A model generated the notes under the pieces. That model was not told the origin of the DNA. It made no database searches and worked only from the letters and a program-made list of their open reading frames with translations. The position numbers and the translations under genes were made by a program. From positions 1 through 47,874 of the forward strand of contig JAFPWS010000071.1 of the NCBI GenBank assembly GCA_017412705.1: DNA of 47,874 nt. The letters run 5' to 3'. Of the stretch, positions 6,658 through 23,167 are shown piece after piece. The stretch comes from Prevotella sp. (GTDB lineage Bacteria; Bacteroidota; Bacteroidia; Bacteroidales; Bacteroidaceae). Every line of letters starts with the position of its first letter. The first letter of the stretch is position 1.

Positions 6658-8484
6658 TTATTTATACAGAGGCCCGAAGTTCTGACATGCTCGATAGTCG
6701 GCACCCTCCTTGTCCATACCGAAGGCATTCCAGCACGAGGGACGGAAGATGTCCTTATCCTCCACGTTGTGCATGCATACGGGGATGCGCAGCATAGCGC
6801 AGAGCGTGATGAGGTCGGCACCTACGTGACCGAAGCAAATGGCTCCGTGGTTGGCTCCCCAGTTGTTCATGACAGAGTAGACGTCCTTGAAGGCATCCTT
6901 CGCGGGGTCCAAACGTGGTGCAAACCATGTGGTGGGCCATGTGGGGTCGGTACGTTTGTCCAGGATGTCGTTCACGTTCTGAGGCAGGTCTACTGTCCAA
7001 CCTTCAGCCAGCTGCAACACGGGGCCGAGCCCTGCTACGAGGTTCAGGCGCAGCATGGTCATCGGCATGCCGCCACGAGTGAGGAAGTGCGAGCTGTAGC
7101 CACCTCCGCGGAAGTAGTCGCGGTCGGCAGGCATCCACGAGGTAGCCTTCAGACAGGCCTCCCAGTCTTCCTGCTTCATGTCCCAGAACTCCTTGATGGT
7201 AGGTTTGCCCTCGGCGTCGTTCATGGCACCGGTAGCATCCAGCGTCGTAGCACCACTATTAATAAGGTGTATGAATCCACCGGCGGCACCGCCCTCAGCC
7301 TTCCAGCCACTGACGCGCTCAACAGCCTCAGGACTCCAGTAGGTACGTATGTCGGAGAACATGACGCCACGATTGGTCAGCAGGTGTCCGAAGAGCATCG
7401 ACATTCCGTTCAGGAAGTCGTTCTCCGTAGCCAGCGTATAAGCCTCGCGCGGACCGTTCCAGTCGAACGAGGTACACATCATCGACTCAGGGAAGTCGAA
7501 GTTTGGCTTGTAGTCGGTCCACTGACGCTGACCCTGTACACCGGCAGCAATGGCGTTATGTCCGATGGCCTCTTCCTTGTAACCCATCTCCAACAGTTTT
7601 TCTGAACCCTGCATCAAGTCGCGGATAATCATCATGGTCTTCACAGTGAACTCCCAGTCCTCGTCCTTCTCCTGACGGTTCTTACCCTTACCCTTGCCGT
7701 TGAAGGTAGTCATAGGCACGCCAGGGAACAAGGGACGATCCTCGTTATAGTCGTGACCCTCCTGGGGCTTGCAGTACTTTTCAACCCACGCCATAGCCTT
7801 CTGGAACTCGTCCTTGTCGTAGATGCCGAAGTCCACACGGCGCAGAATCTCTACCAGCGAGACATACTCCGTACGCATGCCCAAGTAGTTCTGCAGGAAG
7901 TCGGCATTCACGATAGAGCCGGCAATACCCATACAGGTGTTGCCTAACGACAGATAGCTCTTGCCGCGCATGGTAGCCACCGCCTGGGCAGCACGGGCAA
8001 AGCGCAGAATCTTCTCGGCTACATCGGCGGGAATGGTGTTGTCGTTCAAGTCCTGCACGTCATGACCGTAGATACCATAGGCAGGCAGGCCCTTCTGGGC
8101 ATGAGCAGCCAGCACGGCAGCCAGATAGACGGCACCTGGGCGCTCCGTACCGTTGAAGCCCCAGACGGCCTTGGGGTACGTCGGGTTCATGTCCATCGTC
8201 TCCGATCCGTAGCACCAGCAAGAGGTGACGGTGATAGTGGCTCCCACGCCCTCGCGCTCGAACTTCTCGGCACACGCAGCACTCTCGCCTACGCGTCCGA
8301 TGGTAGTGTCTGAGATGACACACTCCACAGGCGAGCCGTCGCCGTTCTTCAGTGAGCTCTCTATCAGGTTCTTCACAGCGTTGGCCAGCGCCATCGTCTT
8401 CTCTTCCAGTCCCTCGCGGATACCACCCTGACGACCGTCAATCGTAGGACGTATGCCAATCTTCGGATAATTCTTCTTCATCAT
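6658..8484 (-). CDS. fucI: L-fucose isomerase
   Basis: Converts L-fucose to L-fuculose (and often D-arabinose to D-ribulose) in the cytosol, with a divalent metal. Recognised by [22 protein letters not shown] at the N terminus, [10 protein letters not shown] and [16 protein letters not shown] in the active-site domain, and [14 protein letters not shown]. The length, about 608 residues, is close to other FucI proteins. The frame is open to 8508, but the conserved N terminus begins at the ATG pair at 8484/8481, which I prefer. A perfect 9-bp palindrome (8509-8529) lies 25 bases upstream of this start. No fucose kinase, aldolase or permease is adjacent, so this is an orphan fucose gene in the window. 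It could also serve fucose released from host or plant glycans. Confidence 0.95.
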
Positions 8485-8508
8485 TTGTTTAAATATTGCT
8501 TTGATCAT

Positions 8509-11253: not shown

Positions 11254-11952
11254 TTATTTACGTACGACGACAGCGCCCGGATATTTGGAAATGTCTAATT
11301 TGAAGACGTCGTCAGAGACACCTACCTTCACGCGGTTGATGGTTACGGTCATCTTGACACCGCCTTTCCGAGCAGACATCTCGCGGACGTAGAAGTTGTC
11401 CTTGTCTATCCTGACTGTCATCTTCTTGGGGTCTTCCTTGTCGACAGGGTCGCTGAAGGTGATGACGTAGTACTTGTCCTTCAGCTTCATCGTAGCCTTG
11501 CGATAGTCCTTGTCAAAGTCGAAGGTGATGGTGTTGTCAGTCTTCTGCTTCGCACTGGTCTTGGTAATCTTCAGCGAGTCCTTCAGCTCCAGCTTCTTGC
11601 CCTTCTTCCGGGCTTTCTCCTTGACATCCTCCGATAATTCAAAGCTTTCGTACACCCACTGCTGGGTGCCGTCGAAGCCCTCTTCCATCTTCGTCACCTG
11701 CCCGAGCATCTTCATCTTGCCCTTCATCAGCGACTTTTCGCCCTTGCTCCACAGCTTCGTCTCCATGTTGCCCTTGAAAATCAGCATGCCGAGGTGGATG
11801 TTCATGTCTATCTCCAGTCCTGCGGTATTGGTCATCTTGGCATTGGTCTTCCTGATGACCTCAGCCACGTCGGCAGGAATCTGCGCCTGCACGCTCACCA
11901 GGCCGCAGAAGAGAAGGATGGCGACCAGCATCCGTTGGATAGCCTTATTCAT
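11254..11952 (-). CDS. LolA-like periplasmic protein
   Basis: A protein of 232 residues with a signal peptide ending VSVQAQ. The mature part begins with a helix containing VIRKTNAKMTNTAGLEIDMNI and then a run of beta strands with an exposed KMKMLGQ pattern, which fits the half-barrel fold of LolA/LolB-type lipoprotein carriers. Bacteroidetes encode many such proteins of unknown role, so lipid or lipoprotein binding is inference from the fold pattern. It is the last gene of the minus-strand carbohydrate operon, 19 bases after the symporter stop, but nothing ties it to sugar metabolism beyond position. Several Lys-rich segments (KEKARKKGKKLELKDS) make it very basic in the middle. Confidence 0.55.
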   Translation of the reverse strand: MNKAIQRMLVAILLFCGLVSVQAQIPADVAEVIRKTNAKMTNTAGLEIDMNIHLGMLIFKGNMETKLWSKGEKSLMKGKMKMLGQVTKMEEGFDGTQQWVYESFELSEDVKEKARKKGKKLELKDSLKITKTSAKQKTDNTITFDFDKDYRKATMKLKDKYYVITFSDPVDKEDPKKMTVRIDKDNFYVREMSARKGGVKMTVTINRVKVGVSDDVFKLDISKYPGAVVVRK

Positions 11953-11971: not shown

Positions 11972-13489
11972 TTATTGTTTGGTGCCCTTGACGAGGAACG
12001 TCAGCAGGAAGCCCACGAGGAATATCGTGGTGGTACCCAGCACGATAGCCAGGTAGGGATGCAGGTGCGGACCTGGCAGCGACCACATGTCGGCCAGCGA
12101 TATCCAGCCAATGACCACGATGCCGCCTATGCAGCCAGACAATGCCGCCCAGCGATTGATGCGCGCAGGGATACAACCCAGCAGGAAGAGTCCAAGCATG
12201 CCTCCTGAGAAGATGCTCGACAGCGTCCACCAGGCGTCGATGATGCTTTCCACACTCAGCATGGCAATGGCCACGCAGGCGCCCAGCAGACCTACACCAA
12301 AGCTCGAGAGACGCACGATGGCGAGTTCCAGCTTTTGGTGCTTATGATGGTCTTGCGGGTCGTGATGGCGCAACTTGTCTGTCACATTACGAGCCTTTAG
12401 GAAGAACGGACGCACGTAGTCGGTCAGGATGATAGTAGCCGCTGACGTAACGGAGGTAGACACGGTCGACATACCTGCCGCAAAGATAGAGGCAATGAGC
12501 AGTCCTCTGAGGCCTACTGGCAAACCGTTGACTATGAAGTAAGGGAACACGTAGTCGGGTTTGGCCTGAATATCGGCAGGCAACGGGGCTACACCCGCCT
12601 GATAGTACGAGTACAAAGCTGAACCGATGAGGAAGAACAGGGCCGAGACAGGAATGAACAGGTAGCCTCCGAAGAGTGCCGAGAACTTAGCGTCCCTGTC
12701 GGTCTTGGCAGCATGGTAGCGTTGTACGTAGTTCTGGTCGATGCCGTAGTTCTGCAGGTTGATGAAGACGCCATAGATAAGGCATACCCAGAACGTCGAA
12801 GTCGTGAGGTCGCTGGTAAACGCACCCAACGAGAATTTGTTGCCCATGGGCGAGTTGGCCGCCAGCTCGAAGGTCTGCATGGGGCCTTCAGGCATTGAGA
12901 ACATCAAGATGCCCAAGCACAGCAGCGCTCCACCTATTAATATAATACCCTGTATGGCATCGGCCCAGATGACTGCCTTCAGGCCACCCATCATAGAATA
13001 GACGATGATGCCTATCGAGGTCAGGATGATGACGGTATGCATGTCCCAACCCATCAGAATATACATCGGAACGGCCAGCAGATAGAGGATGGAGCCCATG
13101 CGAGCTATCTGCGTCAGCAGGTAGCAGGCAGAGGCATAGAGACGTGCCCAGGCACCAAACTTCTCCTCAAGGAAGGTGTAGGCCGACACGCTTCCGCTAT
13201 GCCTGTAGAAGGGCACGAAATACTTGGCAGCGAAGTAGCTGGCAATGGGGATGGAGAGCGAGAAGACAAAGGCGTTCCAGTCGGCAGCAAAGGCCTTTCC
13301 CGGGTAGCCAATATAAGAGATGCTCGACACGTAGGTGGCAAAGATGCTCATGCCCACCACCCAGCCAGGGATGGAGTGTCCTGCTGAGGTGAATTCGTCA
13401 GCGCTGCTGCCCTTCTTGAAGAACGAGCATCCGAAGACGACGACGCCCAACGTGAAGACAATGAAGATGATGAAATCAATCAGATGCAT
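11972..13489 (-). CDS. Sodium:solute symporter, SSS family, coupled to the aldolase gene
   Basis: An inner-membrane protein of 505 residues with about 13 hydrophobic segments. The SSS family is recognised by FTSAGHSIPGWVVGMSIFATYVSSISYIGYPGKAF near the N terminus and GLLIASIFAAGMSTVSTSVTSAATI in the core. SSS transporters bring in sugars, sialic acids, amino acids and other solutes with sodium. The start overlaps the end of the aldolase gene by 10 bases, indicating translational coupling and suggesting that the transporter imports the aldolase's substrate. SiaT-type sialic acid transporters belong to this family. Given the upstream enzymes, a 2-keto-3-deoxy sugar acid is a good candidate, but the substrate cannot be read from sequence. 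The C terminus ends in a short basic tail. Confidence 0.9.
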   Translation of the reverse strand: MHLIDFIIFIVFTLGVVVFGCSFFKKGSSADEFTSAGHSIPGWVVGMSIFATYVSSISYIGYPGKAFAADWNAFVFSLSIPIASYFAAKYFVPFYRHSGSVSAYTFLEEKFGAWARLYASACYLLTQIARMGSILYLLAVPMYILMGWDMHTVIILTSIGIIVYSMMGGLKAVIWADAIQGIILIGGALLCLGILMFSMPEGPMQTFELAANSPMGNKFSLGAFTSDLTTSTFWVCLIYGVFINLQNYGIDQNYVQRYHAAKTDRDAKFSALFGGYLFIPVSALFFLIGSALYSYYQAGVAPLPADIQAKPDYVFPYFIVNGLPVGLRGLLIASIFAAGMSTVSTSVTSAATIILTDYVRPFFLKARNVTDKLRHHDPQDHHKHQKLELAIVRLSSFGVGLLGACVAIAMLSVESIIDAWWTLSSIFSGGMLGLFLLGCIPARINRWAALSGCIGGIVVIGWISLADMWSLPGPHLHPYLAIVLGTTTIFLVGFLLTFLVKGTKQ

Positions 13490-14418
13490 AGCTTACCGTC
13501 TTTGATGGGCAGTGCCTCGAGCGCCTGCTGAATCTTAGCGCGCTCAGGAGCCTCGAACTTATAGAACGGAGAGGCCACGAAGTCGTCGTTGATGATGCCC
13601 AGCAGCGAGAGGGCACACTTCAGCCCCTTCAGGTAGCTGGAGCCATGCTTGCCGACGGTATAGATAGTAGTGGATATCTGCATGATGAGCTGTTGCAGGT
13701 CGAGCACAAGATTGATGTCGCGCGCTGAGGCAGCGTCGTACATGGCCACATAGAGCTCCGGGAACATGTTGGCTCCACCGTTGATGCCACCCTGCGCACC
13801 CAGCAGCACACACTCGCCCGTAATCTCCTCAGGACCTACTAGCATGGCGAAATCCTTGCGGTGCTGCATCTTATACATGACCGACTGGAAGTAGACGGCA
13901 TTGGCCGAAGAGTCCTTGAAACCCACCACCTGCTCGTTCTGCGCTATGCGGGCCACCGTATCAGGGGCGAAGCTCACCTTCACATGCGAGGGCATATTAT
14001 AAAGGAATACGGGCAAGGGCAGCTGGGGCACCAGCTCCTCGTAGAACTGTGCCAGCTCAGGCTGACCTGTAGCGAAATAGTAAGGGGGAGCGCTGACCAC
14101 ACCATCGGCACCACAGTCGGCAGCCACCTGCGCCAGCTTGATGCTCTCGACAATGCTCGTATCGGTGATGCAGGCCAACAGAGGCAGGCGACCTCTGTTG
14201 ATGCGACACGACTCACGAATCATCTGCTTGCGCACGTCGTAGGAGAGGCTTTGCTCCTCGCCCGTCGTGCCCAGCACGAAGAGTCCATGTACACCACCTT
14301 GGATGAGGTGCTCTATGAGTCGTTCCAGACTCTCTACATCCAGCGTCTCGTTATTTACTAAAGGAGTTACCAGCGGCGGGATGATGCCGCTCAGAGGGGT
14401 TTTGAAATTGGGTTTCAT
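13480..14418 (-). CDS. NanA/DapA-family aldolase or dehydratase
   Basis: A class I (Schiff-base) TIM-barrel enzyme of 312 residues. The family markers are GTTGE (50-54), Tyr140 in FLYNMPS and the Schiff-base Lys168 in VVGFKDSS. Members cleave or form 2-keto acids: N-acetylneuraminate lyase, KDG/KDO-type aldolases, dihydrodipicolinate synthase. The segment after the Tyr (NMPSHVKVSF) does not have the arginine that dihydrodipicolinate synthase normally carries there, which points to catabolic chemistry rather than lysine synthesis. It sits between the GH78 gene (30 bases away) and the symporter (10-base overlap). No NanE, NanK or sialidase of the GH33 type is present, so sialic acid is not the obvious substrate. 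I propose Dha or Kdo released by the neighbouring GH143-like enzyme; this is inference. Confidence 0.85.
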   Translation of the reverse strand: MKPNFKTPLSGIIPPLVTPLVNNETLDVESLERLIEHLIQGGVHGLFVLGTTGEEQSLSYDVRKQMIRESCRINRGRLPLLACITDTSIVESIKLAQVAADCGADGVVSAPPYYFATGQPELAQFYEELVPQLPLPVFLYNMPSHVKVSFAPDTVARIAQNEQVVGFKDSSANAVYFQSVMYKMQHRKDFAMLVGPEEITGECVLLGAQGGINGGANMFPELYVAMYDAASARDINLVLDLQQLIMQISTTIYTVGKHGSSYLKGLKCALSLLGIINDDFVASPFYKFEAPERAKIQQALEALPIKDGKLCI

Positions 14419-14448: not shown

Positions 14449-16809
14449 TCATCGGGTGGTTGTCATCACTCTTTCCTGCCTTGTGTGATGGCCTGCCGAC
14501 AACACTTGACTGTCTGCCGAATAGGGCATGCGTAGGGTGGCCGCCTGTCCTTCAGGGATATCGATGTCGAGCATAAACAGGTCGTCCTTTATGCGCCAAG
14601 AGACCTTGACACCATGCGACTCGCCTCGGCACCACGTCAGGTCGCCCACAGGATGCGGAGCCAACACCACCCTTCCCTGCTCACGCCAGATGCCAAGGAT
14701 GTAAGGTACCAGCAGGTTGTTAATATGACCCATCATAAAGTGATTCATCGAGGCACCGTGCTCAGGATTCCACTGTTCCGTCAGCGTGGTATGTCCCAAC
14801 TTTATCTGGTAGCCATAGCCTGGAACATCGTAGTGGTTGAGCATCTTGTAAAGCAAATCCTGTTGTCCATGATGGATCAGGGCATTAAAGAGGTAGCGGT
14901 TACCCACATCGCCTGTAGTCAGTCTGTCGCCATGTTGGTGGATATCGGCTACCAGTTGCTGGAGCACAGCCTCACGATCGCCCTCAGGCACCAGTCCCAT
15001 CTCGAGCGCAATGGCCTGCGCACACTGGCTGCCAGTGGCATACCGGTGGGTAGCGGGGTCATAGAACTCGCGGATAAAAGCCTCACGGATGCTGTCGGCA
15101 CGCGCTTCGCCCATCAGCTTGTTCCACCAATAGTAGTGAGCTGTTGAGACGAGCGGCATGGGGGTGTTCTGTGCAAAACCTGCACGACCAGGTCCGAAGT
15201 CGTACCAGTCGCCCAAACCTTGCTTCAGGATATAGCATGAGTCTTGCGTGGCCAGATAGTCCACATAACGTTTCATCTGTGGACGATAGCGGGCGATGAT
15301 GCTGTCATCGCCATAATACTCCTTGTAGAGGAAGGGCAAGGCAATAAAGGCCCCACCCCACTCGGGCGACTCAAGGAACGGCGGTGCCCACGAACCTTCG
15401 AAGACGCACAGGTTAGGTGCTATCTCAGGCAGGGCGCCATTCTCAAACTGCGCATCGGCAATATCCTGCATGGTCTGTTCGAGCATAGAGCGACAGTCGT
15501 AGTTAGCTAACAACCCCTCGCCATTGAGCCAGTCTTGCTCCAGCCATCCCAGCTTCTCACGATGGGGGCAGTCGGTCCATACGGCTTGCCAGTTGGAGCG
15601 TATGGCGCGGTCAATCAATCGGTAGGCATTGTTGAAAAGGGGATTGGAGCACTCGAAATTGCCCGTTTTATCAGCAGCGTTGTACACAAAGCACGACTCT
15701 ATCTTTTTGAGAACCTCTATATCGCCCTCCACCTGCAGGTATCGGTATCCGTAATAGGAGAACCGCGGATGCCAGATTTCCTGATCTACACAAAGAGATT
15801 GCAATGGCACACTCTCGCAGAGAGAACCATCCCTTTTGTGTAAATTCTGCCCCTTCAGCGTATAGGTATAGTAATGGGGGCGGCCTGTCTGCTTCTGATT
15901 GACAAGTTCCTCCTTGGTCAGCGTCTCGCCAGGAGTGAGCTTCAGGCATTGGCCAGCCTTGCCCTGAACGGTAATCTCAGGAAAACCTGCCAGGTTCTGA
16001 CCCATATCGAGCACCAACACGCTGTCGTACCTGATGGTGTCCTTCACGCCATAGCGCTCCATTATCTTCACCGGATGGGCTATCTGTTTGCGCAGCTGAC
16101 CTTTGGGAGCTTCCTGAATGACTACTGGTTTCCAGCACTTGTCGCTCGCCAAGTGTTCTTCCATACGGGCATCATAGTCCTCGCCACCATAGATGCTGTT
16201 GAAGGTGATGGGTGAGAGAGCCCATTGCCACGAGGCATCGCTCACCACATTCTCCTGCTGTCCGTTCTCGTACTCCAGACGCATGCGGAACAACAAGGTA
16301 GGAGGGCCAAAGGCTATCTTCATCTTCGCATAGCGCCTGCCCTGCTCATTATAAAAGCCATTGCCCAGTAACACCTGAATGCTGAGCGATGACAGCGATG
16401 ACGAAGACGCCAATGACAGTGGGGCATTTATTGTGTAGGTATTATAATAGATGCTCTTGTCGTAGTCGCTCCACAGGGGGGCAAACTCAGCATCGCCTAC
16501 CTTCCTGCCATTCAGCGTGAGTTCGTAGAATCCCAAGCCTACGATGTGGATGGTGGCCTTGCGCACCTTACCTTTCAAGGGAACATCCTTTCTGAGGCAG
16601 ATGCTCCTGTCTGACAGCGTGTCGACTGCTGCCCAAGCCTGCTTAACCTGGGGCTCCTTCAGCTTGGCTCCTGTAAAGTTACGCCCCTGAGGCAGGTTGG
16701 CCTGTTGGCGTGTAATGGCACCAATCCACCGCGCATTCTTGAAGTCGCCTTGCGCAGCAGCTGCCAAAAGGCAAAAGGCAAAAGCCAAAAGCATCAGAGT
16801 CCGTCTCAT
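14449..16809 (-). CDS. GH78 alpha-L-rhamnosidase, secreted
   Basis: A protein of 786 residues that removes terminal alpha-L-rhamnose. It has a signal peptide (1-19), N-terminal beta-sandwich domains (about 25-330) and the (alpha/alpha)6 catalytic domain. The diagnostic GH78 block is WTDCPHREKLGWLEQDW at about 415-431. The ALPEIAP and GDWYDFGPG segments also fit. Its ATG overlaps the preceding stop by 4 bases, so it is coupled to the large multidomain enzyme. Two oddities: the hydrophobic core of the signal peptide is encoded by four near-identical 7-base units (16764-16791), and a dispersed 40-bp element (16385-16424) is embedded in frame, giving a Ser/Leu-rich stretch (LASSSSLSSLS). In rhamnogalacturonan-II, rhamnose caps the Kdo side chain, a fitting target. 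Confidence 0.9.
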   Translation of the reverse strand: MRRTLMLLAFAFCLLAAAAQGDFKNARWIGAITRQQANLPQGRNFTGAKLKEPQVKQAWAAVDTLSDRSICLRKDVPLKGKVRKATIHIVGLGFYELTLNGRKVGDAEFAPLWSDYDKSIYYNTYTINAPLSLASSSSLSSLSIQVLLGNGFYNEQGRRYAKMKIAFGPPTLLFRMRLEYENGQQENVVSDASWQWALSPITFNSIYGGEDYDARMEEHLASDKCWKPVVIQEAPKGQLRKQIAHPVKIMERYGVKDTIRYDSVLVLDMGQNLAGFPEITVQGKAGQCLKLTPGETLTKEELVNQKQTGRPHYYTYTLKGQNLHKRDGSLCESVPLQSLCVDQEIWHPRFSYYGYRYLQVEGDIEVLKKIESCFVYNAADKTGNFECSNPLFNNAYRLIDRAIRSNWQAVWTDCPHREKLGWLEQDWLNGEGLLANYDCRSMLEQTMQDIADAQFENGALPEIAPNLCVFEGSWAPPFLESPEWGGAFIALPFLYKEYYGDDSIIARYRPQMKRYVDYLATQDSCYILKQGLGDWYDFGPGRAGFAQNTPMPLVSTAHYYWWNKLMGEARADSIREAFIREFYDPATHRYATGSQCAQAIALEMGLVPEGDREAVLQQLVADIHQHGDRLTTGDVGNRYLFNALIHHGQQDLLYKMLNHYDVPGYGYQIKLGHTTLTEQWNPEHGASMNHFMMGHINNLLVPYILGIWREQGRVVLAPHPVGDLTWCRGESHGVKVSWRIKDDLFMLDIDIPEGQAATLRMPYSADSQVLSAGHHTRQERVMTTTR
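16385..16424. repeat. Dispersed 40-bp element inside the GH78 gene
   Basis: Matches the reverse complement of 8543-8582 at 32 of 40 positions. The coding strand reads the stretch in frame as LASSSSLSSLS, in the N-terminal beta-sandwich region. Confidence 0.55.
16764..16791 (-). repeat. Four-unit 7-bp repeat in the GH78 signal peptide
   Basis: Plus-strand units CCAAAAG, GCAAAAG, GCAAAAG, CCAAAAG. The coding strand reads LAFAFCLL. As 7 is not a multiple of 3, gain or loss of one unit would shift the frame within the first 20 codons. Confidence 0.8.
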
Positions 16810-19800
16810 AGCGCGTTCTTTATAATCAGTTTGCCAATCGTGTCACTATGGCCTTTCAACTGACCATCCACATAGACGTGCAGTCCTCGACCCACATGGT
16901 AGCGTGTACCGTCCTGGTCCCACACAATGCTGAGCGTATGGCCATGATAGCGCACGTTGTCCAGACAGAAGTAAGACCACTTTCCTGCAGGTAGCAGGGG
17001 ATTGACCTCCAAGGTGTTGTCCTGACGCGGACGCAGCCCACACAGGCCTGTAATGACAAGGTCGTTCCATGTCGAGTGGTTATAGTAGCGCGAGCGCTCC
17101 TGGTCGCCCTTGAGCCAATAGCCTGTGGTCTCGTCGAGGTATTCGCCTATATAGGGCTTGCCGCGCATGTGCTGGCTCTGCATGTATTTCTCCATTTCAG
17201 CGAAGTAAAGGGAGTCGAGAGGCAGTATGGTTTCCCCGATGGAAGCAGTATAGTCGTTGGCGAAGTTGGCCAATGCTGTCAGCGTCTGGCTGGTGGCAAA
17301 GGGCCATACGGCACCGTCCCACTCACATTTGCCTACACCGTGGGTGCGGAACTGGGGATGGCGACGCTCAGCAGTAGTCTGACCATACGGGGCCGAGAAG
17401 CCTTTTTCGTCGGCAGCCTGTAACCAAGCGACAGCATATTTGGTGTCATTCTTAGCCAGATGGGTATACCAGGGCATGAAGCCGATGGCCTCGCGCACGT
17501 TGGCACTGGAGTCGATGCGGTGCGTCTCGAAGAACTGGTGCTGTTCGTTCCACAGCTTCTGATGTACCTTCTCTTTTAAGTCAGCAGCCTTGTCGAAGTA
17601 GCTCTTGGCCTTGGCATCGTCGCCAGTCAGCCGGGCGATATTTCCAATGGCCATTGCATTGCCATACATATAGCTATTGATGCTGGGGCGCAGGTACTTC
17701 TTCTTCCTGCCTCCGCTAATGGTCTCTTCCATAGCGTCCTGCACATCGGCCTGCCAGTAGAGGCCTCCCTCACGGGTGTGGGTGGTCTCCCAATGGTTAT
17801 ACTCCCACTCCAGCGAGGGCAGCATAGAGACTATCCAGTCCTTACGGCCATCAACCAGATAGCGTCCCCACAGCGAATGGGCTATCCACGAGGAGTAGTT
17901 GCAGAGCTTGGCCATGGGGTTCCCGTCGTTGCCTTTATACCAGGTCTCCATGGCCTGGTCAAGGTAGACGGGGTTGTGCAGCCAGCGACTCTCATGGATA
18001 TGGTGACCCACGCCTGAGCTGATGAGGTTATACTTGTCGGCATAGGAACGAGGCACGAGAAACTCCGTCATGGCATAGCCTACGGGGGTGCGCTTCAGAT
18101 GCTTGCGCAGCGTCCACCAGCGGAAGTACCACAGTTCTTCGAAATCCTGTTGTGAGCACTCAAAGAGGGGGATGTTCTCCTTCATCCACTCCCACGCCCC
18201 GCTATTGGGGATGGCCTGCTGGATGCCCTCAGGCTCCATCTGGTTGAAGTAGTCGATGTAGTGCTTGTAGTCGTCGAAGCGGAGGAAAGCGGCGGTGGCG
18301 TCCTCGTCCAGACTCTTCGTGCGGAAACCACTAAAGGCAAATATGGCTTCCGGCTCGCGCTCGCCGGCATTTTCAAGCGTGCCATCCCAATCGGCAGGGG
18401 TGTCGATGTCGGGGAATGTGCGACGGGTTCCTGTTCGGAACATGATGCGCTCGATGCTCTCAACGGGTGCAAAAAACATGCGCTGACCGGCCTTCTTGCC
18501 GTTGATATATACCTCTATCATCCGCTTTGAGACACTTAGCACGCATTTCATGCGGAACACTTCGTTGGCACTATACTTCCCGAGGTTTCCATAGCGGGCT
18601 CCGCCCTTACAGCGGATGATGCCTTCATCGGTGAGTTCAATACGCGAGCAGGCCGTACCATGTTGGTCGAGGAATTCTATTTGAAGCAGACCGCGGTTAT
18701 TCTGCTTGGGCAAAAGCATGAATTCTACGTCCAGTTCCTTGGTGGCAGGTATCTTGCGCTCTACACGGGCATAGTCGAAGGGGTCACTGTCGCTCATAGT
18801 GAGCCAATCGCCTTCCATAGTCACTGGCGCATAGATTGGGGAGTAGATGTTCCAGGCTGTAAGCCGGGAGAGGGGAAGACTGACAGGAGATCCGTCAACC
18901 ATATTACGATTTGCAGTGAACTCGGTGCCGTCAGCATGGCTGTGGGCCTCGGTCTGCACAGGCACAGGAATGTGGGCCACCCACATGTCTTCCTTATTCA
19001 TTGAGTAGGTCACCCACAGGTCGGAGTCCTTGGGCACACCATTTCCCTCCTGGATGCCTCGCACATACTGCGGACCATACGACTTGTAGTTGCCGCCATA
19101 GCGCATGGGAGGAACCTCACCTTGTACGAGATTCAGCGTGGTATACTCCAATCCGTCCTTCGACAGCGAGATGCCCAGCGGCCAACGGTATTCAGAGGGG
19201 TTGTAGATGGTGGCATAGGTGCCATCGGTCAAGCGCTGTCCCCAAATCTTTGCATTGCTGTTGACAAAGCCCTTGGCGCGCTCAACAGGTTGTGCCCACG
19301 TGTTGCCTCCGTCGTCAGAGATGCTGGTCAGGGCATGCTTCCACAGGGAGGCCAAGCGTCCGTCGGGCAAGGTATAGTCGCAATAGGCCTTATACTCTTT
19401 GTGCAGGGGGATGAGCGGGTCGTTGCGATCGGCTTCTTCCACCCATTGCATGCGGTAGCGTGGATTGGCCAGTATCTCCTCGCAGGCCTTTTGGATGTCC
19501 TTGGGAGCCTTCGTATAGAAGGGGAAGGCACTCTTATAGGTTCCGCTCTTCACATTCCTTTCGTAGTTTCCATTCAGATAGATGAAATAGATGGGGCCGA
19601 AGGTACCGTCCTTCTTCACCTCGCGAATGACGCGTCCCATGCCATTACCATCATTGGGATCATCCTTGCGGTCGAAGGCCACACCATAGTTGCCAATGGC
19701 CCATAGCTGTCCGCTCTTAGACACATACCACCCTACACGCTGGTGCATGATGGCTATGAGGTTGTGGGCTCGCTCAAGACGGTCAGGTTTCTGAAAGCCC

Positions 19801-21026
19801 TCAGGCACCGGCACCTCAGGGAAGAGAATGGTGGGTTCTGTCCATGTATAGCCGTCTTTCGAGGTCTGCAGCATGGTGCGCGAAGGGGGAATATGCTCAT
19901 CGCTGGGGTCGCAGAGGTAGTGCACATAGAACTGGTTGTTCCAGTAGGCCATCATGGGCTGGTGGTTGTAAGTCCAGCCATCGTTGCCTGCCCGAGTGGA
20001 GTGTTCACGGTTGGCACGCAGTATCTGGATGTTATGCACACCCACCACAGGACTGAGTCCTCCATCGTGACGCTCGGGATTGCTGAGCGTAGTGCCTGTA
20101 TAGTGTATGCGGTCGTAGGCATGCAATAGGTTGTATATCAGCTGTTCAGGGGCTTTGAAGATGGTGCCGTGCTTGTGGTGCACAGGGACACTGACCTGCT
20201 TGGAGACATCCTCGAAGGTAACAAAGTCCTTGGTGAAGTGGGCACCGAAGTCCTTCAGGCGATAACGATCGTAGTATATAAGCCAGCCACCATCCACCTT
20301 CGCCGTCGTGGGACCTTCCATCATCTTACCCGTAAAGGGTTCGGAGGCCTTCGACCAGGGACCGTAGGGCGTCTTGCCGTAAGCCACCTTGATGTCACGT
20401 TCAGGACGGGTGTTGTCTTTGAGCACCATGACGTAATCCTTCTTGCCACGCTTGACCAGCGTCGCGTCAATGCACGAGAAGCCTGGGTCTATCATCAGCT
20501 TCGTAGGGGCAAAGGTCTTAAAGTCTTTCGTCGTGGTGTAGTAGAGACGATGATTGTTCTTGTGGTCTTCCTGCCCGTCAGGGAACTTGCCTGGTATACA
20601 CGAAGCCCAGACGATGACGGCTTGCTGGCGCTCGTCGTCCCAGAACAGCTCTGGGGCCCAGACGTTGACGGTAGTGGTATCGGGCATCACCTCAATGAAA
20701 CGCTCCTCGCTCCAACTCTTCAGGTCTTTCGACGAGGCATAGCCAAAGCCTCTGTCGCCACGCCAGGAACTGGTCCATACCAAATGGAAAGTACCATCGG
20801 GCGTACGGATAATGCTGGGGTCACGCATGACACGCTGCTTGCCCACCTCGGGTTTGAGCCAGGTGCCCGGAATGGAGTCCCAGTGCCAACCATCGTAGCT
20901 ATAAATGAACCTAAGCCCATCGGTAGCAGGCTCGTGAAACGAAGTTGAGACATACACTTCGCGCTGGGCAGACATGGCCAGCGCAGTAGCCAACAGGAGG
21001 AAAAAGATACAAAAACGTCTTGTCAT
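16806..21026 (-). CDS. Multidomain glycosidase: GH43-like, GH143-like (Dha hydrolase) and GH142-like (beta-L-arabinofuranosidase)
   Basis: A secreted protein of 1406 residues; signal peptide MTRRFCIFFLLLATALAMSAQ. The start at 21026 is chosen because the frame above it (to 21173) lacks signal features. Residues about 22-330 are a GH43-type propeller with all three expected acids: Asp in MRDPSI, Asp in CIDATLV, Glu in MMEGPT. About 335-745 is a sialidase-like propeller with one Asp-box (SDDGGNTW). About 745-950 is a beta-sandwich. About 960-1390 is an (alpha/alpha)6 domain (LCNYSSWIAHSLWGRYL, GVGKCEWDGAVWPFATSQ). The last three parts resemble Bacteroides thetaiotaomicron BT1020, which from memory combines GH143 (removes Dha from rhamnogalacturonan-II) and GH142 (removes beta-L-arabinofuranose from Dha). 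The N-terminal GH43-like domain is extra. First gene of the operon; GH78 follows with a 4-base overlap. Confidence 0.75.
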   Translation of the reverse strand: MTRRFCIFFLLLATALAMSAQREVYVSTSFHEPATDGLRFIYSYDGWHWDSIPGTWLKPEVGKQRVMRDPSIIRTPDGTFHLVWTSSWRGDRGFGYASSKDLKSWSEERFIEVMPDTTTVNVWAPELFWDDERQQAVIVWASCIPGKFPDGQEDHKNNHRLYYTTTKDFKTFAPTKLMIDPGFSCIDATLVKRGKKDYVMVLKDNTRPERDIKVAYGKTPYGPWSKASEPFTGKMMEGPTTAKVDGGWLIYYDRYRLKDFGAHFTKDFVTFEDVSKQVSVPVHHKHGTIFKAPEQLIYNLLHAYDRIHYTGTTLSNPERHDGGLSPVVGVHNIQILRANREHSTRAGNDGWTYNHQPMMAYWNNQFYVHYLCDPSDEHIPPSRTMLQTSKDGYTWTEPTILFPEVPVPEGFQKPDRLERAHNLIAIMHQRVGWYVSKSGQLWAIGNYGVAFDRKDDPNDGNGMGRVIREVKKDGTFGPIYFIYLNGNYERNVKSGTYKSAFPFYTKAPKDIQKACEEILANPRYRMQWVEEADRNDPLIPLHKEYKAYCDYTLPDGRLASLWKHALTSISDDGGNTWAQPVERAKGFVNSNAKIWGQRLTDGTYATIYNPSEYRWPLGISLSKDGLEYTTLNLVQGEVPPMRYGGNYKSYGPQYVRGIQEGNGVPKDSDLWVTYSMNKEDMWVAHIPVPVQTEAHSHADGTEFTANRNMVDGSPVSLPLSRLTAWNIYSPIYAPVTMEGDWLTMSDSDPFDYARVERKIPATKELDVEFMLLPKQNNRGLLQIEFLDQHGTACSRIELTDEGIIRCKGGARYGNLGKYSANEVFRMKCVLSVSKRMIEVYINGKKAGQRMFFAPVESIERIMFRTGTRRTFPDIDTPADWDGTLENAGEREPEAIFAFSGFRTKSLDEDATAAFLRFDDYKHYIDYFNQMEPEGIQQAIPNSGAWEWMKENIPLFECSQQDFEELWYFRWWTLRKHLKRTPVGYAMTEFLVPRSYADKYNLISSGVGHHIHESRWLHNPVYLDQAMETWYKGNDGNPMAKLCNYSSWIAHSLWGRYLVDGRKDWIVSMLPSLEWEYNHWETTHTREGGLYWQADVQDAMEETISGGRKKKYLRPSINSYMYGNAMAIGNIARLTGDDAKAKSYFDKAADLKEKVHQKLWNEQHQFFETHRIDSSANVREAIGFMPWYTHLAKNDTKYAVAWLQAADEKGFSAPYGQTTAERRHPQFRTHGVGKCEWDGAVWPFATSQTLTALANFANDYTASIGETILPLDSLYFAEMEKYMQSQHMRGKPYIGEYLDETTGYWLKGDQERSRYYNHSTWNDLVITGLCGLRPRQDNTLEVNPLLPAGKWSYFCLDNVRYHGHTLSIVWDQDGTRYHVGRGLHVYVDGQLKGHSDTIGKLIIKNAL

Positions 21027-21058
21027 GTTACATACATTATTTATTAATAGACGAAAAA

Positions 21059-21090
21059 TTTGGTTGTTTGTAACTAAATCCGTACTTTTG
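21059..21090 (+). promoter_or_regulatory. GH127 promoter
   Basis: TTTG (21059-21062), a 20-bp spacer and TACTTTTG (21083-21090), 25 bases before the ATG at 21116. Confidence 0.7.
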
Positions 21091-21101
21091 CCGACAGAAA
21101 G

Positions 21102-21132
21102 CAAAACTATAACATATGAAACGATTATCAAC
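21102..21132 (-). promoter_or_regulatory. Candidate promoter of the glycosidase-aldolase-symporter operon
   Basis: On the minus strand TAGTTTTG (21102-21109) matches TAnnTTTG. A GTTG (21129-21132) lies 19 bp upstream, inside the first codons of the GH127 gene. The two divergent promoters overlap, so both transcripts would start in the same 20 bases and could be controlled together. Confidence 0.5.
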
Positions 21133-23167
21133 CCTCGTGCTTGGCCTGGCCATCCTGTTGACAGCACAAGCACAAAACAGAACTAACGGCTATCCCATTA
21201 GCCAAGTACCCTTCACTGCCGTCAAGGTGACGCCTAACACCTTCTGGGGCGACCGCATCCATGCTGCCCGCGAGGTCACCATACCGTTGGCCTTCTCGAA
21301 GTGTGAGAGCGAACACCGCTATGAGAACTTCACCATGGCAGCCTATACCCTGCAACACCCTGGCCATGAGGGACTGAAGACGCCCAAGTGGGATGTATCG
21401 AAATTCATGGGCTTCTCGTTCGACGATACGGATGTGTACAAGACCATCGAAGGCGCCAGCTACGTGCTGCAGACCTATCCGGACAAGAAACTCAAGGCCT
21501 ACATTGACTCAGTGCTCGACGTGGTAGCTGCTGCGCAAGAGCCTGACGGCTACCTCTATACCGCTCGCACCATCAATCCTGCGCACCCGCACCAGTGGTC
21601 AGGCAAGAAACGCTGGGAGGTTGAGGAGGTGCTGAGCCATGAGCTCTACAACCTGGGCCACATGGTGGATGCCGCCTGCGCCCACTATCAGGCTACAGGG
21701 TCGGACAAGTTCCTGAACATTGCCAAACGCTATGCTGACTGCGTCATCCGCGAGGTAGGCCCCAATGCAGGACAGGCCTGCGTGGTACCTGGCCACCAGA
21801 TAGCAGAGATGGCCTTGGCCCGCCTCTATGTGCTGACGGGTGAGAAGAAATACCTGGACGAAGCGAAGTTCCTTTTGGACTATCGCGGGAAGACGAAGAT
21901 TCACGACATCTATTCACAGAGCGACAAGCCCATCCTGGAGCAGAAAGAGGCATGGGGTCATGCTGTACGTGCAGGCTATATGTACGCCAGCATCGCTGAT
22001 GTAGCAGCACTGACGCAAGACTCTGCCTACCTGAAGACCATTGATACCATCTTTGAGAACATCATCTCTAAAAAGTATTACATTACAGGTGGCGTAGGAG
22101 CCCGCCATCAGGGTGAAGCTTTTGGCGCCGACTACGAGTTGCCCAACCTGACTTCCTACAACGAGACATGTGCAGCCATCTCGATGGTCTACCTTTTTCA
22201 TCGCATGTTCCTGTTGCATGGCGACGCCAAGTATATCGACTGCATGGAGCGTACCTTGTATAATGGTGTCATCAGCGGCATGTCTGTCGACGGAGGACGC
22301 TTCTTCTATCCCAACCCGCTGTCGTCAGATGGCAAGTATGCCTTCAATGCGGATAACACCGTAGAGCGCCAGCCTTGGTTCGGATGCGCCTGCTGTCCCT
22401 CAAACCTGTGCCGCTTCATCCCCTCGCTGCCTGGATATATGTATGCCGTCAAGGACCGCAACCTCTACGTGAACCTGTTTGGAGGCAATACGGCAACCAT
22501 CAAGGTAGGTGGCAAGGATGTCGTGCTGGAACAGCAGACCAACTACCCTTGGGAGGGCGACGTAAACATCAAGGTGGTAAGCAACAAGGCCAAGGCTTTC
22601 AACATGATGGTACGCCTGCCTGGCTGGGTAGACCGGTCGCCAGTACCCTCTGACCTCTATCGCTTTGCTGATGACGTGCTGGGCAGTTACAGCGTGAAGG
22701 TGAATGGCCAGGAGGTGAAGGCTGAGCTGACCAAGGGTTATCTGAACCTGAATCGTCAGTGGAAGAAGGGCGACGTGGTGACCATCCGTTTCGACATGCC
22801 CGTACGTACCGTAAAGGCCAACCATCACGTGATAGACGACCGTGGACGCATCGCCGTGGAACGCGGCCCGCTGGTGTATTGTGCCGAGGGAGCAGACAAC
22901 AAGGACTTCAGCATCTTCAACTTCCTGATGCCTCGCCAGCCCCGCTTCAACGTCACAGAGCGTCAGATCAATGGACTGCGCGATGTCACCTTCAAGGTCA
23001 AGGCCATAGAGGCCAATGGCCAGACGGTAAGCACCAACAAGCAGGGCGAGGCTACCGTTCAGCCTGCTACGCTGACCATGATACCTTACTATGCCTGGAA
23101 TCATCGTGGTCCAGGGCTGATGGAGGTATGGATGCCACAAAGCATCAGTGCCCTCGGCAATTACTAA
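21116..23167 (+). CDS. GH127 glycosidase (beta-L-arabinofuranosidase or aceric acid hydrolase type)
   Basis: A secreted protein of 683 residues with a signal peptide ending TAQAQ. The GH127 (DUF1680) fold is recognised by the N-terminal FWGDRIHAARE, the catalytic-domain GAASYVLQ-like helices and FDMPVRTVKANHHV in the C-terminal sandwich. The zinc-thiolate active site is intact: Glu350 and Cys352 in NETC, and the pair Cys426-Cys427 in CACCPSN, equivalent to the Glu, Cys and Cys-Cys residues known in HypBA1, where one Cys is the nucleophile. The family includes beta-L-arabinofuranosidases and, from memory, the aceric acid hydrolase of rhamnogalacturonan-II breakdown; sequence alone does not decide between them. 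Divergent from the GH143/GH142-like gene across an 89-bp shared control region, so the two are probably co-regulated. Convergent with the next gene, 9 bases away. Confidence 0.9.
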   Translation: MKRLSTLVLGLAILLTAQAQNRTNGYPISQVPFTAVKVTPNTFWGDRIHAAREVTIPLAFSKCESEHRYENFTMAAYTLQHPGHEGLKTPKWDVSKFMGFSFDDTDVYKTIEGASYVLQTYPDKKLKAYIDSVLDVVAAAQEPDGYLYTARTINPAHPHQWSGKKRWEVEEVLSHELYNLGHMVDAACAHYQATGSDKFLNIAKRYADCVIREVGPNAGQACVVPGHQIAEMALARLYVLTGEKKYLDEAKFLLDYRGKTKIHDIYSQSDKPILEQKEAWGHAVRAGYMYASIADVAALTQDSAYLKTIDTIFENIISKKYYITGGVGARHQGEAFGADYELPNLTSYNETCAAISMVYLFHRMFLLHGDAKYIDCMERTLYNGVISGMSVDGGRFFYPNPLSSDGKYAFNADNTVERQPWFGCACCPSNLCRFIPSLPGYMYAVKDRNLYVNLFGGNTATIKVGGKDVVLEQQTNYPWEGDVNIKVVSNKAKAFNMMVRLPGWVDRSPVPSDLYRFADDVLGSYSVKVNGQEVKAELTKGYLNLNRQWKKGDVVTIRFDMPVRTVKANHHVIDDRGRIAVERGPLVYCAEGADNKDFSIFNFLMPRQPRFNVTERQINGLRDVTFKVKAIEANGQTVSTNKQGEATVQPATLTMIPYYAWNHRGPGLMEVWMPQSISALGNY

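What the first reader, a model, noticed from the sequence alone, without database searches (positions are those of the whole stretch)
11972..14418. Aldolase-symporter pair likely for 2-keto-3-deoxy sugar acids (Dha or Kdo)
A Schiff-base aldolase of the NanA/DapA family overlaps a sodium symporter by 10 bases, immediately behind enzymes that should free Dha and rhamnosyl-Kdo from pectin. The route for uptake and cleavage of Dha in gut bacteria is, as far as I know, not defined. This pair is a concrete candidate: enzyme releases the acid, symporter imports it, aldolase splits it to pyruvate and a smaller acid or sugar.
Basis: inference. Interest (0 to 1): 0.75.

Follow-up and report, generated by a model that had tools for sequence, protein, structure and literature searches.

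The report
Kdo uptake and cleavage gene pair
Next to genes that dismantle the pectin RG-II, a rumen Prevotella carries a sodium-driven importer and an aldolase that most likely take up and split the rare plant sugar acid Kdo, a step of gut pectin digestion for which we found no described genes.

Summary
The pair is real. A PF00701 aldolase (ALD1, 13480-14418 -) overlaps an SSS symporter (SSF1, 11972-13489 -) by 10 bp, directly behind GH78 and a BT1020-like GH143/GH142 gene. ALD1 is neither DapA nor NanA: the genome has a separate dapA, ALD1 lacks both NAL sequence blocks (which nanL-type genes of relatives largely keep), and it branches apart. In two samples of Bacteroidales genomes ALD1 co-occurs strongly with GH143.

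The evidence points to Kdo rather than Dha. (i) L-fucose isomerase, which also isomerises D-arabinose (the predicted other half of Kdo), lies on the same strand near ALD1 in 33 of 109 loci, from two separate lineages. (ii) Two other genomes add a ribulokinase, and four loci a sialic-acid-anomerase-like protein. (iii) SSF1 keeps the carboxylate-binding Ser and Arg of the sialic acid symporter SiaT but not its tail and N-acetyl contacts.

A second pair, ALD2-SSF2, fits Dha better: its operon has Fe-ADH, PdxA-like and D-threonate-kinase-like genes, its symporter has two lysines in the pocket, and 8 of 9 carrier genomes have GH143. The window genome lacks ALD2 at the cut-off used.

No activity was measured. 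A new variant built from known parts.

The parts
13480..14418 (-). ALD1: Schiff-base aldolase (PF00701), proposed Kdo aldolase giving pyruvate + D-arabinose
   Evidence: GPEE at NanA positions 189-192 in 68 of 68 redundancy-filtered ALD1 rows
11972..13489 (-). SSF1: sodium:solute symporter, proposed Kdo importer
   Evidence: closest solved protein 5nv9 (SiaT); keeps Ser60, Arg135, Asn247 equivalents
14449..16809 (-). GH78-type alpha-L-rhamnosidase
   Evidence: Pfam Bac_rhamnosid6H 6.3e-79
16806..21173 (-). Fusion of an N-terminal arabinosidase-like (BT_3657-like_N) domain with a GH143/GH142 BT1020-like protein; real start probably near 21026
   Evidence: a separate gene of about 300-326 aa precedes the BT1020-like gene in several relatives
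6658..8508 (-). FucI, L-fucose (D-arabinose) isomerase; proposed to take the D-arabinose half of Kdo; same strand, about 5 kb from ALD1, not in the same tight block
11254..11952 (-). Protein of unknown family 19 bp behind SSF1; no role assigned
   Evidence: no Pfam family at E 0.001

Best explanation
ALD1-SSF1 is a Kdo uptake and cleavage module tied to RG-II breakdown. Outside the cytoplasm, GH78 and other hydrolases expose and free Kdo from side chain C (inferred; the Kdo-releasing enzyme is not identified). SSF1 imports Kdo with sodium, its conserved Ser/Arg pair holding the single carboxylate (inferred from residues). In some relatives a YhcH/NanQ-like protein opens the ring (inferred). 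ALD1 forms a Schiff base with its conserved lysine and splits Kdo into pyruvate and D-arabinose (inferred). FucI isomerises D-arabinose to D-ribulose (a known activity of L-fucose isomerases) and, where present, a ribulokinase makes ribulose phosphate (inferred). Shown here: gene order, clade, signatures, co-occurrence and linkage. Not shown: any activity.
For: Not lysine synthesis: the window genome has two PF00701 genes, one a clear dapA (335 bits, cut-off 206); ALD1 scores 175, below the cut-off. Not a NAL by motif: GPEE in 68 of 68 and [IV]NGG in 67 of 68 ALD1 rows, whereas five nanL-type rows from relatives have G[QL]DE and [IV]GGT. Tree of 57 hand-picked rows: ALD1 (28) apart from NanA/NanL (6, 100/97) and DapA (7, 100/99). 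Four relatives hold nanL-type loci; three of these four (G540, G536, G166) also hold ALD1. Co-occurrence with GH143: 10 of 13 ALD1 genomes against 15 of 295 overall (order sample, Fisher 7e-13) and 11 of 13 against 29 of 301 (family sample, 6e-11), not corrected for kinship. FucI in 33 of 109 loci (32 within 10 kb), all on ALD1's strand. By genome: within 13 kb of ALD1 in 8 of 33 (against 14, 16, 36). In the 14 genomes with positions for ALD1, dapA and FucI it is near ALD1 in 7, near dapA in 0. Linked FucI fall in two separate groups; one is a five-row clade from four families, and two of those genomes (G548, G166) also keep an unlinked FucI. G008: LacI-ALD-SSF-FucI with a divergent ribulokinase; G166: FucI-DUF386-ALD-LacI-ribulokinase. 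DUF386 within 10 kb in 4 of 32 unnamed loci. MFS transporters at three nanL loci are 59-60% identical to the one beside ALD1 in G064, whose relatives sit at ALD1 in G219 and G005. SSF1 keeps Ser60, Arg135, Asn247 and replaces Thr58, Gln82 and Phe243 of SiaT in 96 of 96 rows (SiaT contacts from passages of PMC5931594). Passages: NanA and human NPL cleave KDO (PMC13220900); FucI acts on D-arabinose (PMC6894278); YhcH opens Neu5Ac and KDN (PMC8141875).
Against: 76 of 109 loci show no FucI in the stretch read (of 65 loci with at least 9 kb on both sides, 40 lack it). DUF386, LacI and ribulokinase are near ALD1 in 0 of the 77 named loci (window included). Of the five loci of the FucI clade, four (L165, L174, L192, L193) show none of the labelled RG-II or GH28 genes within 10 kb, so their Kdo could come from LPS; G008 does have a partial BT1020-propeller match next to its FucI. 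In G536, G019 and G008 the linked FucI is the only long FucI found, so it is not shown to be dedicated. G166 has no symporter in the stretch read (L165). In the window FucI is 5 kb away with other genes between, it is the genome's only long FucI, and none of the genome's four FGGY kinases is a ribulokinase by NCBIfam (assembly 86% complete). 33 of 109 loci have no labelled RG-II or GH28 gene within 10 kb. The nanL-type control also misses the NCBIfam nanA cut-offs, so missing those is weak evidence. The SSF1 pocket pattern is shared by symporters of the sister pairs ALDx in 4 of 4 rows at Ser60, Arg135, Asn247 and Asn250, so it is not specific to Kdo. In G111 an MFS-amidohydrolase-dehydrogenase trio lies divergently beside ALD1. 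An added anomerase was not needed for KDO cleavage by NanA/NPL in vitro. ALD1 and ALDx were separated after the searches; counting both, 12 of 19 have GH143. Fisher values ignore kinship. No activity data.
Confidence: 0.62

Rival explanations
1. The window pair serves Dha: SSF1 imports Dha released by GH143 and ALD1 splits it to pyruvate and a four-carbon aldehyde acid.
For: ALD1 co-occurs with GH143, the Dha-releasing family (activity recalled), and sits in the same block in the window; the window genome has GH143 but no ALD2 at E <= 1e-60.
Against: A separate pair, ALD2-SSF2, comes with Fe-ADH, PdxA-like and D-threonate-kinase-like genes, as expected for Dha. SSF2 has Lys at SiaT positions 135 and 250 in 7 of 7 rows; SSF1 has Arg and Asn there in 96 of 96. 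ALD1 keeps Glu at NanA 192, which could repel a second carboxylate (inference). FucI has no evident use for a four-carbon acid.
Confidence: 0.13
2. ALD1-SSF1 scavenges Kdo from lipopolysaccharide rather than from plant RG-II.
For: Four of the five loci of the FucI clade lack labelled RG-II genes within 10 kb; kdsA and a KdsD-type gene lie close to ALD1 in L184, and similar genes by sequence in L185 and L188.
Against: Strong GH143 co-occurrence and physical linkage: GH143 propeller within 10 kb in 22 of 109 loci, GH78 in 32 of 109 at half coverage or more.
Confidence: 0.11
3. ALD1 is a 2-keto-3-deoxy-L-fuconate (or related deoxy-sugar acid) aldolase of an oxidative L-fucose or L-galactose route.
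For: FucI linkage; the MFS-amidohydrolase-dehydrogenase trio beside ALD1 in G111 (the last two named by eye and similarity); DHDPS-family enzymes act on such acids in other bacteria (recalled).
Against: Similar genes also follow GH143 and GH78 in G133, which has a single PF00701 gene, the dapA-like one. FucI belongs to the non-oxidative route. No sugar-acid dehydratase was seen beside ALD1, but neighbours were only partly annotated.
Confidence: 0.08
4. A sialic acid (Neu5Ac/KDN) lyase and transporter.
For: Fold family and SiaT similarity; the window genome has no other PF00701 gene besides dapA.
Against: Lacks the NAL blocks that nanL-type rows keep in DE and GGT; separate nanL loci coexist with ALD1 in G540, G536 and G166.
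Confidence: 0.03

Closest known systems
Protein of PDB 4xky, deposited as dihydrodipicolinate synthase (B. thetaiotaomicron, species recalled)
   Same: 72% identical over 296 residues, same GPEE and NGG signature, falls inside ALD1
   Different: Deposited as DapA; by clade and signature here that name is probably wrong
Sialic acid catabolic module: nanA/nanL + transporter + YhcH/NanQ + epimerase or kinase
   Same: Same logic and fold family: importer, anomerase-like protein in some loci, Schiff-base pyruvate aldolase, enzyme for the released aldose
   Different: 27.5% identity to E. coli NanA, 25-26% to two nanL-type proteins, NAL blocks not met, FucI where nan loci have an epimerase
SiaT (PDB 5nv9), SSS sialic acid symporter
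   Same: Closest solved relative of SSF1; carboxylate-binding Ser60 and Arg135 kept
   Different: Thr58, Gln82 and Phe243 replaced by Tyr/Phe, Leu/Ile and Gly
Kdo aldolase EC 4.1.2.23
   Same: Predicted reaction, Kdo to pyruvate + D-arabinose
   Different: Recalled as an activity without an assigned gene; not checked in a database
RG-II loci of B. thetaiotaomicron type with BT1020 (GH143/GH142)
   Same: GH143/142 gene followed by a GH78 gene, as in L195, L196 and L198-L202
   Different: In the window the upstream arabinosidase-like part is fused to the BT1020-like part, and ALD1-SSF1 follows directly

Membership tests
DapA (4-hydroxy-tetrahydrodipicolinate synthase) | Reaches the NCBIfam dapA cut-off (206 bits) | tested here: not met
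   175 bits; the genome's other PF00701 gene scores 335
DapA (4-hydroxy-tetrahydrodipicolinate synthase) | Arg at the position of NanA 142, the PSR motif (role recalled) | tested here: not met
   Arg in 7 of 7 DapA rows, His in the window ALD1
N-acetylneuraminate lyase | Sugar-binding block G[FYPV]DE | tested here: not met
   GPEE in 68 of 68 rows; nanL-type controls GQDE or GLDE, so the second letter varies but DE holds; block from passages of PMC4016182
N-acetylneuraminate lyase | Aldol-cleavage block [I/V][G/S][S/G]T | tested here: not met
   [IV]NGG in 67 of 68, VSGG in 1; nanL-type controls [IV]GGT in 5 of 5
N-acetylneuraminate lyase | Groups with NanA/NanL in a tree | tested here: not met
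   Separate branches; the tool warned of long branches
N-acetylneuraminate lyase | Reaches NCBIfam nanA cut-offs | tested here: inconclusive
   ALD1 126/281 and 102/382, but the nanL-type control also misses them, 147/281 and 121/382
Schiff-base pyruvate aldolase (PF00701) | Catalytic Lys and Tyr (NanA K165, Y137) | tested here: met
   K and Y in ALD1
Kdo aldolase (EC 4.1.2.23) | Cleaves Kdo to pyruvate and D-arabinose | not testable with these tools
   Needs a purified-enzyme assay
SSS sodium symporter | Pfam SSF match and sodium-site residues | tested here: met
   PF00474 1.9e-38; Ser342, Thr343 in 96 of 96, Asp182 in 80 and Glu in 16 of 96
Sialic acid symporter SiaT | Direct Neu5Ac contacts Thr58, Ser60, Thr63, Gln82, Arg135 | tested here: not met
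   Ser60 and Arg135 kept, Thr63 is Ser, Thr58 and Gln82 replaced, each in 96 of 96
RG-II utilisation locus | GH143/GH142 protein present and linked | tested here: met
   In the window; GH143 propeller at half coverage or more within 10 kb in 22 of 109 loci, window included

The most novel reading that the evidence does not exclude
Bacteroidales that eat RG-II carry two parallel modules for its two ulosonic acids. Module 1 (window): SSF1 + ALD1, with FucI and in some species a YhcH-like anomerase and a ribulokinase, takes Kdo to pyruvate and ribulose phosphate. Module 2 (not found in the window genome): SSF2 + ALD2 + Fe-ADH + four-carbon acid kinase + PdxA2-like dehydrogenase takes Dha to pyruvate and, through D-threonate, to dihydroxyacetone phosphate. 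D-threo is the configuration that Dha carbons 5 and 6 would give after reduction of carbon 4 (worked out by hand).
Probability: 0.5. Interest if true: 0.82.

Novelty: new variant of a known kind. Interest (0 to 1): 0.72.

Why it matters
RG-II is the most complex pectin and its glycosidases are known, but how gut bacteria use the freed Kdo and Dha is, as far as our searches show, not described. This gives candidate genes for both acids, each with a one-enzyme test, a likely gene for a Kdo aldolase, and a reason to recheck 4xky-type proteins named DapA.

Tried and rejected
Lysine or sialic acid role: rejected. The shorter (about 480 aa) FucI-domain proteins near ALD1 in G631 and G646 were not counted as support: in G631 the gene sits with a glycerol-kinase-like FGGY kinase and split transketolase genes, an arrangement I recall from apiose catabolism. 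The 43-46% relatives (ALDx, 6 of the 19 order genomes hit) were kept apart: different motif (GTE or GSE) and 2 of 6 have GH143. A first count gave GH143 near ALD1 in 33 of 109 loci, but its label accepted matches to the N-terminal domain alone; the stricter count is 22 of 109. The wider label count, 76 of 109 loci with an RG-II-type or GH28 gene within 10 kb, also accepts partial matches, and no background rate was computed for these common families. Early gene calls missed genes under spurious antisense ORFs, so counts use the later caller. No structure prediction or fold search was run, since a 72% identical chain is already in the PDB. Those bearing on Kdo or Dha use (8, 10, 33, 39, 72) showed, in listings of at most 20 titles, none that describes it; one search found no paper for six phrases. 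The Nature 2017 RG-II paper and the PNAS 2016 DUF1537 paper are not held, so a description there is not excluded.
Full report
What is there. On the minus strand of the window four genes lie head to tail: a BT1020-like GH143/GH142 protein (16806-21173), a GH78 rhamnosidase (14449-16809), a PF00701 aldolase (ALD1, 13480-14418) and an SSS sodium symporter (SSF1, 11972-13489). The junctions are a 4 bp overlap, a 30 bp gap and a 10 bp overlap.

What ALD1 is not. The window genome has two PF00701 genes. One is a clear dapA (335 bits, cut-off 206). ALD1 scores 175 and misses the dapA, nanA, archaeal KDG-aldolase and KdgD cut-offs. For nanA this is weak evidence, because a nanL-type control also misses its cut-offs. 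The motifs are stronger: ALD1 has GPEE in 68 of 68 redundancy-filtered rows and [IV]NGG in 67 of 68 (VSGG in one), where N-acetylneuraminate lyases are described with G[FYPV]DE and [I/V][G/S][S/G]T (passages of PMC4016182). Five nanL-type rows from relatives have G[QL]DE and [IV]GGT. In a tree of 57 hand-picked rows ALD1 lies on the other side of a 97/90 split from NanA/NanL and DapA. ALD1 itself has 74/79 support because a sister group (ALDx) is close, and the tool warned of long branches. Four relatives carry nanL-type loci with an epimerase-like gene and, variously, an MFS transporter, nagB or a NanQ-like gene; the epimerase and anomerase names are below their NCBIfam cut-offs. The best PDB hit, 4xky, deposited as dihydrodipicolinate synthase, is 72% identical and falls inside ALD1.

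Link to RG-II. In 295 genomes drawn from the order, 19 match at E <= 1e-60: 13 ALD1 and 6 ALDx by tree and motif, a split made after the search. Fifteen hold a full GH143 propeller; 10 of the 13 and 2 of the 6 are among them (Fisher 7e-13 for ALD1). In 301 genomes of the family 13 hold ALD1, 29 hold GH143 and 11 hold both (6e-11). Without the window genome the values are 1e-11 and 6e-10. They ignore kinship, and 4 and 2 genomes with weak propeller hits were not counted as GH143. Of 109 ALD1 loci read (the window, 76 named and 32 unnamed; 4 skipped), 97 have the symporter within 300 bp on the same strand. A GH143 propeller at half coverage or more lies within 10 kb in 22 of 109 and GH78 in 32 of 109. 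By looser labels 76 have some RG-II-type or GH28 gene within 10 kb and 33 have none, several of these in short stretches. The named loci are close Prevotellaceae relatives, so they are not independent, and overlap between the named and unnamed sets was not checked.

Why Kdo. Aldol cleavage of Kdo gives pyruvate and D-arabinose (established chemistry); NanA and human NPL cleave KDO (passages of PMC13220900). L-fucose isomerases also act on D-arabinose (passages of PMC6894278). FucI is the notable neighbour: 33 of 109 loci (32 within 10 kb), all on ALD1's strand. By genome, FucI lies within 13 kb of ALD1 in 8 of 33. In the 14 genomes where ALD1, the dapA-like gene and FucI all have positions, it is near ALD1 in 7 and near dapA in 0. 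In a 43-row tree the linked isomerases form two groups: five sequences from four families in one clade (SH-aLRT 97), and a Prevotella plus G111/G211 clade (100). G548 and G166 hold both a linked and an unlinked FucI, the unlinked one in what looks by gene sizes and an MFS match like a fucose operon; G536, G019 and G008 hold only the linked one. G008 has LacI-ALD-SSF-FucI with a ribulokinase on the other strand; G166 has FucI-DUF386-ALD-LacI-ribulokinase, without a symporter in the stretch read. DUF386 is the YhcH/NanQ family, which opens Neu5Ac and KDN rings (passages of PMC8141875); the member linked to ALD1 in G548 scores below the anomerase cut-off (95 against 160). DUF386, LacI and ribulokinase occur near ALD1 only in unnamed loci (4, 5 and 4 of 32, two of the four kinases being weak matches of 31-32%), in 0 of 77 named ones. 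In G219, G005 and G064 an MFS transporter sits at ALD1; MFS transporters at three nanL loci are 59-60% identical to the G064 one.

The symporter. SSF1's closest solved relative is SiaT. Of the Neu5Ac contacts described (passages of PMC5931594), 96 of 96 SSF1 sequences keep Ser60, Arg135 and Asn247 and have Ser for Thr63, while Thr58, Gln82 and Phe243 are replaced. That fits one carboxylate held as in SiaT, with a different tail and no N-acetyl group. The kept residues are shared by the symporters of the sister pairs ALDx (4 of 4), so the pattern is not specific to Kdo, and the alignment near position 82 crosses a gap.

The Dha module elsewhere. Beside GH143 in G208 and G108 is a second pair, ALD2-SSF2 (25% and 39% identical to the window pair over their aligned parts), followed by Fe-ADH, PdxA-like and 'IADDxTGAAE' kinase genes. 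NCBIfam was run on these three in G208 and in G111: several Fe-ADH models, all below cut-off; pdxA above one cut-off and D-threonate 4-phosphate dehydrogenase below cut-off; D-threonate kinase best but below cut-off. G108, G064 and G006 show the same three genes by sequence, G219 and G211 by size, G282 in part; G131 does not. ALD2 is in 9 of 295 order genomes, 8 of which have GH143. All 7 SSF2 rows carry Lys at SiaT positions 135 and 250, two basic residues, as a dicarboxylate might need. By hand, cleaving Dha and reducing the aldehyde gives D-threonate, the substrate of that kind of kinase. The window genome has no ALD2 at E <= 1e-60, so its own use of Dha is open.

Weak points. No activity is known. 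The window's FucI is 5 kb from ALD1 with other genes between and is the genome's only long FucI. No ribulokinase was found among four FGGY kinases in this 86% complete assembly. Four of the five loci of the FucI clade show no labelled RG-II or GH28 gene within 10 kb, although G008 has a partial BT1020-propeller match beside FucI, so LPS Kdo is a possible source. An added anomerase was not needed for KDO in vitro.

Novelty. All parts belong to known families; the combination is new to us. Ten paper searches over an open-licence library listed no paper that describes Kdo or Dha use by gut bacteria; the main RG-II paper is not in that library.

Noticed in passing
16806-21173: The BT1020-like protein is fused to an N-terminal arabinosidase-like domain that is a separate gene of about 300-326 aa in several relatives; in some other families the GH143 and GH142 parts are separate genes too (L171, L172).
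   Followed up: partly
L265, L264, L267, L268, L269: ALD2-SSF2-FeADH-PdxA-kinase operon, candidate Dha route through D-threonate.
   Followed up: yes
L216 14173-19091: Isomerase-like gene, glycerol-kinase-like FGGY kinase and split transketolase genes next to ALD1, like an apiose pathway (recalled); a similar kinase-isomerase pair is on contig C64 of the window genome (L314).
   Followed up: partly
L176-L180: Sister aldolase-symporter pairs (ALDx) beside BNR_2-like genes; possibly for another ulosonic acid.
   Followed up: no
L184, L185, L188: Kdo synthesis genes (kdsA and a KdsD-type gene, checked by family in L184 only) within a few genes of ALD1, with a GH28-like gene between them in L184.
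   Followed up: partly
L171 8227-9315: BNR_2 protein between ALD1 and GH143 genes; candidate Kdo-releasing hydrolase.
   Followed up: no
PDB 4xky: Deposited as dihydrodipicolinate synthase but falls in the ALD1 clade; probably misnamed.
   Followed up: partly
21116-23167: GH127-type beta-L-arabinofuranosidase on the opposite strand beside the GH143/142 gene.
   Followed up: no
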